Origin: Ensifer adhaerens
GTDB lineage: Bacteria > Pseudomonadota > Alphaproteobacteria > Rhizobiales > Rhizobiaceae
Assembly: GCF_013283195.1 (NCBI RefSeq)
Contig: NZ_JABEKT010000001.1
Location: forward strand, 1,028,795-1,092,794
Length of the DNA: 64,000 nt
Direction: 5' to 3'
Under the pieces are notes generated by a model, which made no database searches, had not been told where the DNA came from, and saw only the letters and a program-made list of their open reading frames with translations. Made by a program: the position numbers and the translations under genes. Below are positions 13,252-50,707 of this stretch, piece after piece. The first letter of the stretch is position 1; each line of letters starts with the position of its first letter.

Positions 13252-13273
13252 TTCGCACAAGTTTCGTTTCCTA
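13252..13273 (+). promoter_or_regulatory. class II flagellar promoter motif upstream of fliF
   Basis: TTCGCACAAG followed nine bases later by CTA. The same arrangement occurs before the DUF1217-flgF, flgB, fliH-like-motB, flgE and flhA operons. It lies 147 bases before fliF. It is proposed as a Rem-dependent promoter element on the basis of recurrence. Confidence 0.5.
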
Positions 13274-13419
13274 CGGTCCCGATCGGGGCTGATGGATTCG
13301 TGTGTATTGCAAGCCGTTACGGGGCACACGACACCCATCAAACCCGAATGTTGGAACTGCGCAGGGCGCTCGTCGGATGACCGGCTTGAACGTTCTGCGA
13401 TACTGGGTGCGGAAACAGA

Positions 13420-15096
13420 ATGAGTCTGTTGAATCAATTTTCGATGTTCACGAAGAACCTCGCCGGGCTGGGGCAAGGCAAGCTGATAGCGCTGGCCGCC
13501 GCCGGCATTATCGCTGTCGGCATGGTCCTGGGCGCCGGCATCTACGTCAACAGGCCATCGTTCGAGACGCTCTATGTCGGGCTCGAGCGAAGTGACGTCA
13601 CTCAAATCAGCATTGCGCTTGCAGAAGCCAATATCGACTTCAATGTCGGTGCCGATGGTGGCAGCATCCAGGTTCCCGTCGGCATGACCGGCAAGTCCCG
13701 TCTGCTGCTCGCCGAGCGCGGCCTGCCGAGCAGCGCCAATGCCGGCTATGAACTCTTCGACAATGTCGGCTCGCTCGGCCTGACCTCCTTCATGCAGGAA
13801 GTCACCCGGGTTCGCGCGCTTGAAGGCGAAATCGGACGCACCATCCAACAGATCTCCGGTATCGCCGCTGCCCGCGTCCACATCGTCATGCCCGAGCGCG
13901 GCAGCTTCCGTAAGGCAGACCAGAACCCGACCGCCTCGGTGATGATCCGTGCCAGCGCCACGGTCGGCCGCAATGCCGCAGCCTCCATCCGCCATCTCGT
14001 CGCCTCGTCCGTACCGGGGCTCGATGTCGATGACGTGACCATTCTCGATTCGACCGGTCAGCTTCTCGCCTCGGGCGACGATCCGGCCAACAGCGCCCTC
14101 AACCAGTCTCTGGGTGTGGTTCAGAACGTCCAGACCGAGCTTGAGAAGAAGATCGACAACGCGCTCGCTCCATTCCTCGGCATGGACAACTTCCGCACCA
14201 GCGTCACGGCACGCCTCAACACCGACACGCAACAGATCCAGGAGACGATGTTCGATCCGGAATCGCGAGTCGAGCGTTCCACCCGCGTCACCAAGGAAGA
14301 GCAGAAGTCCAGCCAGCAGCAGCCGGACAACGCTGCGACCGTGCAGCAGAACATTCCTCAGGCCGCCCCGAAGGGTGGCGCCGGCCCGCAGTCGAGCGAC
14401 CAGGCAGAGAAAAAGGAAGAGCAGACCAACTACGAGATCAACAGCAAGACGATCGCGACCGTGAAGAACAGCTACACGGTCGAGCGCCTGTCGATTGCCG
14501 TGGTCGTCAATCGTGGTCGCATTGCCGCCATGGTCGGCGAGCCCGTCGATCAAGCCAAGGTCGACGCCTACCTGCAGGAGATGCAGAAGATCGTGTCGTC
14601 CGCCGCCGGCATCGATGCGAACCGCGGCGATGTGGTGACCCTCAACGCAATGGACTTCGTCGAGACGCAGCTGCTCGACCAAGCCGTCGCCGGTCCGGGC
14701 ATCATGGAGACGCTGACGCGCAATCTCGGTGGCATCATCAATGCGCTCGCCTTCGTCGTCGTCGCCTTCCTGGTGGTCTGGATGGGCATGCGGCCGCTGG
14801 CTCGCCAGCTTGGCCTTGGTGGAAGCTCCGGCCAGCTCGCCAATGAGTCCGCCGGTCTCGAACTGCCCGATTTCTCCCCTGCGACGGCAGGTGCCGGTGG
14901 CGCCCTCATGGACGGCTTCGGTTCCGACTTCGGCTTCGACAGCACCGACGACCTTCTCAGCATGGGCGAGGACGCCGGCAGCTTCAACCGCCGCGTCAAG
15001 GAAGGGCCGGAAAGGCGCCTTGCACGCATGGTCGAGATCAGCGAAGAGCGCGCCGCCAAGATTTTGCGCAAATGGGCGATCGAGAAAGCCGCCTGA
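13420..15096 (+). CDS. fliF: flagellar MS-ring protein FliF
   Basis: This 558-residue inner-membrane protein builds the MS ring, the base of the flagellum. The first membrane span lies at residues about 22-43 (LIALAAAGIIAVGMVLGAGI), followed by the periplasmic ring-building YscJ-like domains (RLLLAERGLPSSANAGYELF, VHIVMPERGSF). A low-complexity linker rich in Q, K and E spans about residues 285-340. The second span is near 437-457, and the cytoplasmic C-terminal tail binds FliG. It is preceded by a 461-base regulatory gap and followed by a strong terminator, so it is probably transcribed alone. Confidence 0.96.
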   Translation: MSLLNQFSMFTKNLAGLGQGKLIALAAAGIIAVGMVLGAGIYVNRPSFETLYVGLERSDVTQISIALAEANIDFNVGADGGSIQVPVGMTGKSRLLLAERGLPSSANAGYELFDNVGSLGLTSFMQEVTRVRALEGEIGRTIQQISGIAAARVHIVMPERGSFRKADQNPTASVMIRASATVGRNAAASIRHLVASSVPGLDVDDVTILDSTGQLLASGDDPANSALNQSLGVVQNVQTELEKKIDNALAPFLGMDNFRTSVTARLNTDTQQIQETMFDPESRVERSTRVTKEEQKSSQQQPDNAATVQQNIPQAAPKGGAGPQSSDQAEKKEEQTNYEINSKTIATVKNSYTVERLSIAVVVNRGRIAAMVGEPVDQAKVDAYLQEMQKIVSSAAGIDANRGDVVTLNAMDFVETQLLDQAVAGPGIMETLTRNLGGIINALAFVVVAFLVVWMGMRPLARQLGLGGSSGQLANESAGLELPDFSPATAGAGGALMDGFGSDFGFDSTDDLLSMGEDAGSFNRRVKEGPERRLARMVEISEERAAKILRKWAIEKAA

Positions 15097-15123
15097 TTAC
15101 ACACGGAAATCGTCTGACAGGGG

Positions 15124-15151
15124 AAAATCCCGCCACTTCGGCGGGATTTTT
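15124..15151 (+). terminator. rho-independent terminator of fliF
   Basis: AATCCCGCC-ACTTC-GGCGGGATT forms a GC-rich stem followed by a run of T, 28 bases after the fliF stop. This is a strong classical terminator. Confidence 0.9.
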
Positions 15152-15924
15152 CGTTTCCGTGGTGATGCGGATGCCATCATGTCCGGCGCAACTATTGTGC
15201 GAGTCTCTGCGGATTCTGCGGTCAGTCGCTCGATGCGCGGCAAGAATCGTTGATCATTCGTCAGAGTCATGGGTGTGGCCGGCGATCGTATTGCTTTAAC
15301 GAGATCTTAATTTGTAGATTCCGCAGTCGCCGTCGACGTGCTCCAGGCGGGCTGGTTTACTGCTTCGGCCATGATCAATACATAGATAAATTGTAATATA
15401 AATTTGACTATTCGATAATAATCAATGTCGTACTCTGTTTTTATATAGTGAAAGACTACGGTTGTTCGATCAAACAACTGATGCATTTCCGCAACAGGCG
15501 CTGCTCTAAAGTAAAAAATGCATCTATTCGACGATTTTCCCGACTCCCTCGAGCGGCGGCATTTCCGTTGGAATTGTGCTCAGCACTGTATCCGGCGCTG
15601 CGCGAAATCGATGCGGCAGCGGAGCAGGGGCAATTCGAAAACAAAAACTCTTTTAAATATCAACGCTATGTCAAAACACATGCTGCTGGATGCCGGAATT
15701 CGGAAAAGCCGATGCGGCATCTTTGCGAATCGTTTCACGAAAGGTGGGTGAAGTAAATAGCGAGAAGATGGCGGTGGTTTTTTTTGAGGACGGATGTACA
15801 TTTTTAACAGTTGATTCGCGTCCTGAATTGCGACTGGTGGTGATGTTCGGCTTGAGCCGGCTGTCGGCGGCGACAGTGCAAGCACAGGTTCCAGGGCGGT
15901 GAATCCGGCACGGGGGCTGACATC
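15152..15924 (+). other. long non-coding region upstream of visN with an AT-rich island
   Basis: This is 773 bases without a convincing gene. The part from about 15363 to 15455 is sharply AT-rich compared with the rest of the window and includes a possible promoter, TTGTAA (15391-15396) - 17 bases - GATAAT (15414-15419). Short ORFs after it (for example 15518-15751) have poor codon use and no family resemblance. The region may hold the visNR promoter with a long 5' leader, or a small RNA. This is inference from composition and position. Confidence 0.5.
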
Positions 15925-49989: not shown

Positions 49990-50390
49990 GTGGCGTCAGT
50001 AACAATGACTACAGCCCGATCGTCTCGGGTGCCGATTCCGGCAACGACGCCAGCAAGGCGTCGCTGAACTATGAGAGCTTCCTCAAGCTGCTCGTCGCCC
50101 AGATGAAGAATCAGGACCCGACCCAGCCGATGGACGCCACGCAGCAGATCGCGCAGCTTGCGACCTTCTCGCAGGTCGAGCAGACGATCAAGACCAACAA
50201 GAACCTCGAGAGCCTGCTGCAACGCACGTCGCTTAGCGAGGCGGATGCGGTGATCGGCAAAACTGTCACCAATGCAGACGGAACGGTCACTGGCGTCGTC
50301 AAGGAAGTCAAACTATACTCTGACGGAATCATTGCAGTGCTGGATAACGGCAAGGAGCTCGTTATCGGCCCAGGCGTCAAGGTAAAGTGA
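49980..50390 (+). CDS. flgD: flagellar hook cap protein FlgD
   Basis: This 136-residue hook assembly cap has the diagnostic segment YESFLKLLVAQMKNQDPTQP followed by QQIAQLATFSQVEQT. It is much shorter than enteric FlgD (about 230), ending soon after a single small beta region (TVTGVVKEVKLYSDGIIAVL); rhizobial FlgD proteins are short as far as I recall. The start lies inside flbT. It ends eight bases before fliQ. Confidence 0.93.
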   Translation: MAVSGVSNNDYSPIVSGADSGNDASKASLNYESFLKLLVAQMKNQDPTQPMDATQQIAQLATFSQVEQTIKTNKNLESLLQRTSLSEADAVIGKTVTNADGTVTGVVKEVKLYSDGIIAVLDNGKELVIGPGVKVK

Positions 50391-50397
50391 TACCCGA

Positions 50398-50664
50398 ATG
50401 AATGAGGCGGATGCCCTCGATATTGTGCAGGCTGCGATCTGGACCGTGATCGTGGCCTCAGGGCCCGCCGTTCTCGCCGCGATGATCGTCGGCGTCGTCA
50501 TCGCCTTTATTCAGGCGCTGACCCAGGTTCAGGAAATGACCCTGACCTTCGTCCCGAAGATCCTTGCGGTGATGATCACGGTCGCCGTTTCCGCGCCCTT
50601 CATCGGCGCTCAGATCTCGATTTTCACCGACATCGTCTTCTCCCGAATCCAATCTGGATTCTGA
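50398..50664 (+). CDS. fliQ: flagellar export gate protein FliQ
   Basis: This 88-residue protein has two membrane spans (VIVASGPAVLAAMIVGVVIA; LAVMITVAVSAPFIGAQIS) joined by the conserved loop FIQALTQVQEMTLTFVPKI. Size and motif are standard. It is part of the FliPQR gate; FliP lies at 31970 and FliR at 52860. It is the last gene before the flhA promoter gap. Confidence 0.95.
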   Translation: MNEADALDIVQAAIWTVIVASGPAVLAAMIVGVVIAFIQALTQVQEMTLTFVPKILAVMITVAVSAPFIGAQISIFTDIVFSRIQSGF

Positions 50665-50685
50665 TCGCGCGTTCGCGCTACCACC

Positions 50686-50707
50686 TTCGCGCAAGCTTGG
50701 GCCTCTA
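50686..50707 (+). promoter_or_regulatory. class II flagellar promoter motif upstream of flhA
   Basis: TTCGCGCAAG followed nine bases later by CTA, 69 bases before flhA. A perfect 7-bp hairpin (GGGCAGC ... GCTGCCC, 50725-50748) lies between it and the flhA start and may mark the leader. Confidence 0.5.

What the first reader, a model, noticed from the sequence alone, without database searches (positions are those of the whole stretch)
13252..50707. Shared TTCGCRCAAG-N9-CTA-like motif before six flagellar operons
Reading the gaps before operon heads shows one pattern: fliF (13252, TTCGCACAAG-N9-CTA), DUF1217-flgF (22878, TTCGCGCAAG-N9-GCA), flgB (26567, CCCACGCAAG-N9-CTA), fliH-like-motB (38973, TTCGCACAAG-N9-ATA), flgE (45380, TTCACGCAAG-N9-CTA) and flhA (50686, TTCGCGCAAG-N9-CTA). 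The N9 spacing is kept in all. These are operons expected to be class II (Rem-dependent) by analogy with S. meliloti, and the motif is not seen before rem. It is the best candidate for a Rem site or class II core promoter. In flgB and flgE it lies about 30 bases before the start codon.
Basis: partly seen in the sequence, partly recalled or inferred. Interest (0 to 1): 0.75.

Follow-up and report, generated by a model that had tools for sequence, protein, structure and literature searches.

The report
Conserved switch before flagellar operons
A short repeated DNA motif joined to a promoter's -10 element sits in front of the early flagellar operons here and in many related bacteria that carry the regulator Rem, and is very probably the site through which Rem switches those genes on.

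Summary
The motif is real at all six coordinates, and is part of a longer element: an 11-bp direct repeat (about GCMAGCTTC-GC-GCAAGCTT) followed by a -10-like CTAnnnT. A profile built only from relatives ranks the six sites plus three more (before motA, inside motC before fliK, inside flhB) as the nine best places of the window; a weaker site precedes flgJ. The exact pattern TTCRCRCAAG-N9-CTA occurs three times in the 7.07-Mb genome, each time before a flagellar operon. In 80 Rhizobiaceae loci it is kept before flgE (78 of 78 found), flhA (79 of 79 found) and the motB operon (62 of 80), and never before rem (0 of 80). Across the order it goes with Rem: profile sites precede 14 of 40 Rem-type flhA genes and 0 of 40 others. 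Best reading: a Rem box replacing the -35 element. Binding has not been shown; Rem as binder is inferred from its protein family, distribution and known targets. A genome search also found an unlinked gene of unknown function whose Rem box is kept in 6 of 6 orthologues (5 with a CtrA-like box); a second orphan shows both boxes in 2 genomes. The published Brucella FtcR motif, TGTGGGCA, is absent from the window.

The parts
13246..13277 (+). Rem-box promoter of fliF (13420-15096)
   Evidence: exact pattern, one of 3 in the genome; PWM 30.3, above the maximum of 60 simulated windows, not in the training set; same place in 8 of 19 fetched Rem genomes
22872..22903 (+). Rem-box promoter of the DUF1217-flgF-fliI operon (GTG start proposed at 22961)
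   Evidence: PWM 12.6, about 1 expected per window by chance; same place in 3 of 19 fetched Rem genomes
22812..22843 (-). Rem-box promoter of motA (21898-22776), divergent from the DUF1217 site; not in the finding
   Evidence: PWM 14.7, 61 bp before motA; same place in 7 of 19 fetched Rem genomes
17962..17993 (-). Rem-box-like site inside the 3' end of flhB, 113 bp before orf17434; possible internal promoter; not in the finding
   Evidence: PWM 23.7, above the maximum of 60 simulated windows, 20.7; conservation not tested
26561..26592 (+). Rem-box promoter of flgB (ATG proposed at 26618)
   Evidence: PWM 17.1, 0.08 expected per window; same place before flgB-flgC in 7 of 19 fetched Rem genomes; FlgB by NCBIfam
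38967..38998 (+). Rem-box promoter of the orf39041-motB-motC-fliK operon
   Evidence: 62 of 80 relatives have it with at most 1 mismatch
42177..42208 (+). Rem-box inside motC, 251 bp before fliK; probable internal promoter; not in the finding
   Evidence: PWM 17.7; 31 of 80 relatives score 12 or more in the 320 bp before fliK
45374..45405 (+). Rem-box promoter of flgE (45434-46666)
   Evidence: 78 of 78 relatives in which flgE was found, at most 2 mismatches
50680..50711 (+). Rem-box promoter of flhA (50776-52863)
   Evidence: 79 of 79 relatives in which flhA was found, at most 2 mismatches
54000..54031 (+). Weak Rem-box before flgJ (54126) and the two genes after it (flgN and motF by gene order, PMC9812332 passage); not in the finding
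   Evidence: PWM 11.0, eleventh in the window, E 1.2 with R1; 35 of 77 relatives score 12 or more there; same place in 4 of 19 fetched Rem genomes
44670..45341 (+). rem: OmpR/PhoB-type orphan response regulator, proposed binder
   Evidence: Pfam Trans_reg_C 1.6e-16; Response_reg 27.1 bits, below its cut-off of 30.2; ESH-SKLRK of the DNA-binding domain invariant in 19 homologues
44564..44578 (+). CtrA-like TTAA-N7-TTAA 106 bp before rem
   Evidence: such a site lies within 250 bp of rem in 68 of 80 relatives

Best explanation
The element is the DNA site of Rem, the OmpR/PhoB-type class IB regulator, fused to a core promoter. Two 8-bp half-sites (left GCMAGCTT, degenerate; right GCAAGCTT, strong), 11 bp apart and so on the same face of the helix, would be filled head to tail by two Rem DNA-binding domains. 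They cover about -38 to -20; the T, A and T of CTAnnnT fall at -12, -11 and -7 of an ordinary sigma-70-type -10 element, with no good -35 hexamer, so Rem would take over the role of the -35 by holding sigma and RNA polymerase. Rem, made when VisNR turns rem on, would thus switch on the early (class II) operons: fliF, motA-fliMNG-flhB, DUF1217-flgF-fliI, flgB, motB-motC-fliK, flgE, flhA, flgJ. Shown here: the sequence, its conservation, the repeat, the link to Rem. Inferred: binding by Rem, the start sites, activation.
For: Held-out prediction: a profile from relatives' flgE, flhA and motB-operon sites puts fliF, flgB, motA and DUF1217 among its top nine in the window. Repeat: when sites near flagellar genes of other families are chosen by the right half and -10 alone (46 sites), the left half matches the right at 4.28 of 8 bases at offset 11, 1.0-2.6 at the other offsets from 8 to 25, and 2.31 at offset 11 in 93 control hits elsewhere. 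Link to Rem: of 77 exact matches in 297 genomes of the order, 36 lie within 60 kb of rem; profile of 12 or more upstream of 14 of 40 Rem-type flhA and 0 of 40 other flhA (highest 3.9), nine of the latter in genomes that also carry a Rem-type flhA; model R1 gives 58 hits at E up to 0.05 in 11 genomes with Rem, 45 of them within 60 kb of rem (29, 16 counted by hand), and none in 5 genomes whose best Rem match is at most 33-35% identical. VisN passes its cut-off in only 3 of 21 genomes with Rem. Controls in 80 Rhizobiaceae loci, score 12 or more: rem 0 of 80, flaF 0 of 80, orf53587 0 of 77, flgK 1 of 80, flagellin 2 of 80. Rem as activator of class II genes and as an aspartate-less regulator active without phosphorylation is stated in PMC9812332 and PMC8429497 (passages).
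Against: No binding, footprint or mapped 5' end was available. 26 of 40 Rem-type flhA upstream regions score under 12, some with no visible box, and one antisense strand of the 40 scores 12.9. Of 19 Rem genomes fetched around rem, 4 (G139, G085, G116, G164) show no site of 13 or more before a mapped flagellar gene, and 17 of the 66 sites found lie before no mapped gene. The only motif for a Rem homologue in the papers opened here, TGTGGGCA from FtcR ChIP-seq in Brucella (PMC9456535, passages), is different and absent from the window on both strands. The left half is degenerate in this genome: the ten window sites match 2 to 6 of 8 at offset 11, mean 4.0, with 3.2 at offset 10.
Confidence: 0.85

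Rival explanations
1. It is the core promoter of an alternative sigma factor devoted to class II genes; the CAAG block is its -35.
For: Fixed spacing to the -10 and no other conserved block where a -35 would be; present before nearly every class II operon of the window.
Against: T21, A22 and (in two of three operons) T26 fit an ordinary -10; the element is an 11-bp tandem repeat, unusual for a sigma site; it follows Rem through the order. No search for a co-distributed sigma factor was made.
Confidence: 0.06
2. Another regulator with the same distribution as Rem binds it (for example a second OmpR-type protein).
For: Linkage by distribution cannot tell Rem from a co-inherited partner.
Against: Rem lies in the cluster, is reported to activate these genes (passages) and belongs to a family that uses such repeats.
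Confidence: 0.06
3. VisNR binds it.
For: VisNR is the class IA regulator and visN, visR lie in the window.
Against: VisN passes its cut-off in 3 of 21 genomes with Rem; G028, G119 and G286 have boxes and no VisN match. The box is absent before rem, the reported VisNR target.
Confidence: 0.01
4. CtrA binds it.
For: CtrA is reported to activate class III flagellin and chemoreceptor genes in S. meliloti (PMC6180460, passage).
Against: None of the ten boxes holds a TTAA; TTAACC lies instead before the flagellin and che operons and TTAA-N7-TTAA before rem.
Confidence: 0.01
5. Chance resemblance picked out by eye.
For: The literal pattern with 3 mismatches is not enriched in the window, nor with 2 in the genome.
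Against: Exact count in the genome, held-out prediction and conservation in 80 loci.
Confidence: 0.005

Closest known systems
Pho box and other OmpR/PhoB-type tandem sites (recalled)
   Same: Two direct half-sites about 11 bp apart, just upstream of a -10 element, no -35; the regulator has the same kind of DNA-binding domain
   Different: Half-site GCAAGCTT instead of CTGTCAT (recalled); Rem is reported active without phosphorylation (PMC9812332, passage)
FtcR motif TGTGGGCA of Brucella (PMC9456535, passages)
   Same: Proposed for a Rem homologue; fliF named as target
   Different: Different sequence, found in 118 of 363 peaks, no repeat mentioned in the passages seen; absent from the window
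CtrA box TTAA-N7-TTAA (PMC6180460, passage)
   Same: Tandem 11-bp site of a regulator that controls flagellar genes in alphaproteobacteria
   Different: Sequence and target class: here such sites precede rem and a flagellin gene
S. meliloti class II (Rem-dependent) regulon
   Same: Same operons and cascade
   Different: The passages seen describe no Rem DNA site; Rotter 2006, the primary paper, is not held, so it may describe one

Membership tests
OmpR/PhoB-type regulator site | Tandem direct repeat with about 10-11 bp period | tested here: met
   (offset 11 in other families); weaker in this genome
OmpR/PhoB-type regulator site | Bound by an OmpR-type protein | not testable with these tools
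   needs gel shift or footprint
Rem-dependent class II promoter | Found before class II operons, not before rem or class III genes | tested here: met
   met in the window and Rhizobiaceae; outside Rhizobiaceae it also precedes flagellins in 8 of 19 fetched genomes
Rem-dependent class II promoter | Occurs where Rem occurs and not elsewhere | tested here: met
   not every Rem genome shows it
Rem-dependent class II promoter | Expression lost without rem | not testable with these tools
   reported for class II genes in other rhizobia (passage), not tested for these promoters
Sigma-70 -10 element | T-12, A-11 and T-7 conserved | tested here: met
   T21 and A22 at 100% in all three operons; T26 at 98% (flgE) and 97% (motB operon) but 3% in flhA
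Published FtcR motif | TGTGGGCA | tested here: not met
   0 occurrences on both strands of the window

The most novel reading that the evidence does not exclude
The Rem box is an order-wide code that reaches beyond the flagellar cluster and marks unknown orphan genes under joint Rem and CtrA control. The first (214 aa, genome C1:2229323-2229964, between pcm and a LysM gene) has a Rem box in 7 of the 7 genomes found to have it (61 searched), with an exact TTAA-N7-TTAA upstream of the box in 5 of them; the second (86 aa in G295, a 30% identical relative in G313) has a Rem box followed by TTAA-N7-TTAA in both. These would be new motility genes that tie flagellum building to the cell cycle.
Probability: 0.5. 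Interest if true: 0.7.

Novelty: new member of a known kind. Interest (0 to 1): 0.55.

Why it matters
Rem and its homologues (FtcR, LafR, ActR) control flagella in rhizobia, brucellae and kin; in the papers opened here the only binding sequence given for any of them is an 8-mer unlike this one. An explicit box with fixed geometry would let Rem regulons be read straight from genomes, predicts internal promoters, makes it testable how a regulator without the usual aspartate activates transcription, and points to uncharacterised genes outside the cluster.

Tried and rejected
Counting with the literal pattern was too weak to decide and was replaced by profiles. The place at 4212 before the che operon (PWM 6.8, 13 expected per window) was dropped: it lies between two TTAACC boxes. 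The weak place at 20917 before fliN (10.5) was not followed. Own-genome hits C1:978052 (17 bits, after a gene that I read as a cytochrome oxidase subunit) and three others of 12.1-12.4 bits were read or listed and judged probable chance. Twelve off-cluster hits in other genomes were fetched and their downstream reading frames looked at by eye, without family searches: most look unrelated to motility (a Flp pilin, an aminotransferase, an RTX-like protease) and their conservation was not tested; only the orphan in L280 was pursued. Text search for the motif strings gave 117 papers, of which the 20 listed look unrelated by title. One search gave 12 papers holding CGCAAG with the other terms; one was opened for it, where it is a primer. 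'Rem box' and similar phrases occur in none of the bacterial flagella papers among the 25 listed of 90; one search listed 7 papers, none by title on a Rem site. All papers named here were seen as passages only. That the box is unpublished is therefore not established. A block shared by flagellin and che leaders failed a pattern test (1 match, 0.47 expected). The orphan protein was not folded, because the structure tool does not list loci from genome searches among those it accepts.
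Full report
Observation. The six strings are present as described. The window is C1:1028795-1092794 of a 7.07-Mb genome; the nearest named relative by Rem is Ensifer sp. LC163 (100% identical). The exact form TTCRCRCAAG-N9-CTA occurs three times in that genome, before fliF, flgE and flhA. Loosely matched, the pattern is not enriched, so profiles were needed.

Footprint. In the 400 bp before the gene, the motif lies before flgE in 78 of 78 loci where FlgE was found (0/1/2 mismatches: 42/34/2), before flhA in 79 of 79 (11/39/29), and before the motB operon in 62 of 80 at up to 1 mismatch; the other 18 have 3 to 5 mismatches. 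Taking T21 as -12, the start should fall near position 33, which gives leaders of 22 nt (flgE), 19 nt (flgB), 36 nt (motB operon) and 58 nt (flhA). The starts are inferred.

Held-out test. A profile from relatives' flgE, flhA and motB-operon sites (76, 78 and 49 distinct sites, none from the window) was run on the window. The nine best places are the six of the finding plus 17987-, 42183+ and 22837-. fliF (30.3) and 17987 (23.7) exceed the highest score of 60 simulated windows (20.7); flgB 17.1, motA 14.7 and DUF1217 12.6 are expected 0.08, 0.28 and 0.98 times per window. Model R1, made from 50 sites of relatives by another program, gives the same nine first. flgJ is weak here (11.0, eleventh), but 35 of 77 relatives score 12 or more at that gene; fliK does so in 31 of 80; rem, flaF and orf53587 never, flgK once, flagellin twice.

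Other families. Nineteen Rem genomes, 18 from other families, were fetched around rem. Of 66 sites scoring 13 or more, 49 lie within 500 bp before a mapped homologue of a window gene, in 15 of the 19 genomes: fliF in 8, motA in 7, flgB in 7, flgE in 5, flgJ in 4, DUF1217 in 3, flhA in 1 within these stretches, and, unlike in Rhizobiaceae, flagellins too. Four genomes show none (G139, G085, G116, G164). When sites were selected by the right half and -10 alone, 46 near flagellar starts showed a left half matching the right at 11 bp (4.28 of 8; 1.0 to 2.6 at other offsets; 2.31 at offset 11 in 93 hits elsewhere). This is the head-to-tail layout of the CtrA site TTAA-N7-TTAA (PMC6180460, passage) and, recalled, of PhoB and OmpR sites.

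Link to Rem. In 297 genomes of the order, 83 have Rem by the matches I took as such (E up to about 2e-48). FlhA falls into two groups by score among those listed, above 830 and below 635 bits. Profile scores of 12 or more occur upstream of 14 of 40 Rem-type and 0 of 40 other flhA genes. Of 77 exact matches 36 lie within 60 kb of rem, in 28 genomes; 18 lie elsewhere in Rem genomes and 23 in the 214 others. With model R1, 11 genomes with Rem give 58 hits at E up to 0.05, of which 45 lie within 60 kb of rem (29 of 36 by script in seven genomes; 16 of 22 by hand in G299, G340, G348 and G351, whose rem was placed). Of the 13 others, 4 precede the orphan described below and 1 the second orphan. G170, G010, G044, G098 and G115, which have only distant OmpR-type matches to Rem, give none at that level. 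VisN over its cut-off was found in 3 of 21 genomes with Rem, so VisNR is unlikely to be the general reader of the box.

Own genome. R1 returns 12 places at E up to 10, 7 in the window (only 150 of 2956 first-look candidates were scored, and the motA, fliK and flgJ sites are not among the 12). The second best is C1:2229198, just over 100 bp before an unknown 214-aa gene (no Pfam hit; no PDB sequence hit). In 6 of 6 orthologues from 61 family genomes the box is there (scores 20.6 to 29.1), and pcm and a LysM gene flank all of them. Five of the six have an exact TTAA-N7-TTAA upstream of the box; this genome's own copy differs from it by one base. A second orphan (86 aa, G295; not found in this genome) has a Rem box followed by TTAA-N7-TTAA, and so has its 30% identical relative in G313.

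Cascade. TTAA-N7-TTAA stands 106 bp before rem in the window and such a site lies within 250 bp in 68 of 80 relatives; TTAACC stands before the flagellin and che operons. So the sequence suggests CtrA input to rem and class III, and Rem boxes for class II. CtrA control of class III in S. meliloti is reported (PMC6180460, passage).

Literature, all seen as passages. PMC9812332 and PMC8429497 describe Rem as class II activator, the first also as lacking key aspartates. PMC9456535 reports TGTGGGCA for FtcR. PMC8639532 shows that flagellar genes need ActR, without a motif. Rotter 2006 is not held.

Verdict. The finding is right and can be sharpened: a tandem-repeat Rem box with its -10 element, at ten places here, found through much of the order, with predicted targets outside the cluster. 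Binding remains to be shown.

Noticed in passing
L262:1626-2267 (genome C1:2229323-2229964): Unknown 214-aa gene between pcm and a LysM gene with a conserved Rem box and, in most orthologues, a CtrA-like box; candidate new motility gene.
   Followed up: yes
L280:1151-1408 and L293: Second unlinked orphan (86 aa) with a Rem box and a CtrA-like box; the promoter is far better kept than the protein (30% identity).
   Followed up: partly
44564-44578: TTAA-N7-TTAA before rem; such a site lies within 250 bp of rem in 68 of 80 relatives, suggesting CtrA control of rem.
   Followed up: partly
35300-35391, 36495-36587, 37745-37835, 4268-4352: Flagellin and che leaders share a block GGCATGA-nGC ... CCGG-AT near TTAACC boxes; a pattern test did not support it as written.
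   Followed up: partly
L290 (G028): Rem-box-like site 70 bp before what looks like a Flp pilin gene in one genome; could be chance.
   Followed up: no
22763-22961: The long ORF starting at 22763 overlaps motA; the real start of the DUF1217 gene is probably GTG 22961.
   Followed up: partly
15296-15310: A third TTAA-N7-TTAA of the window lies between fliF and visN.
   Followed up: no
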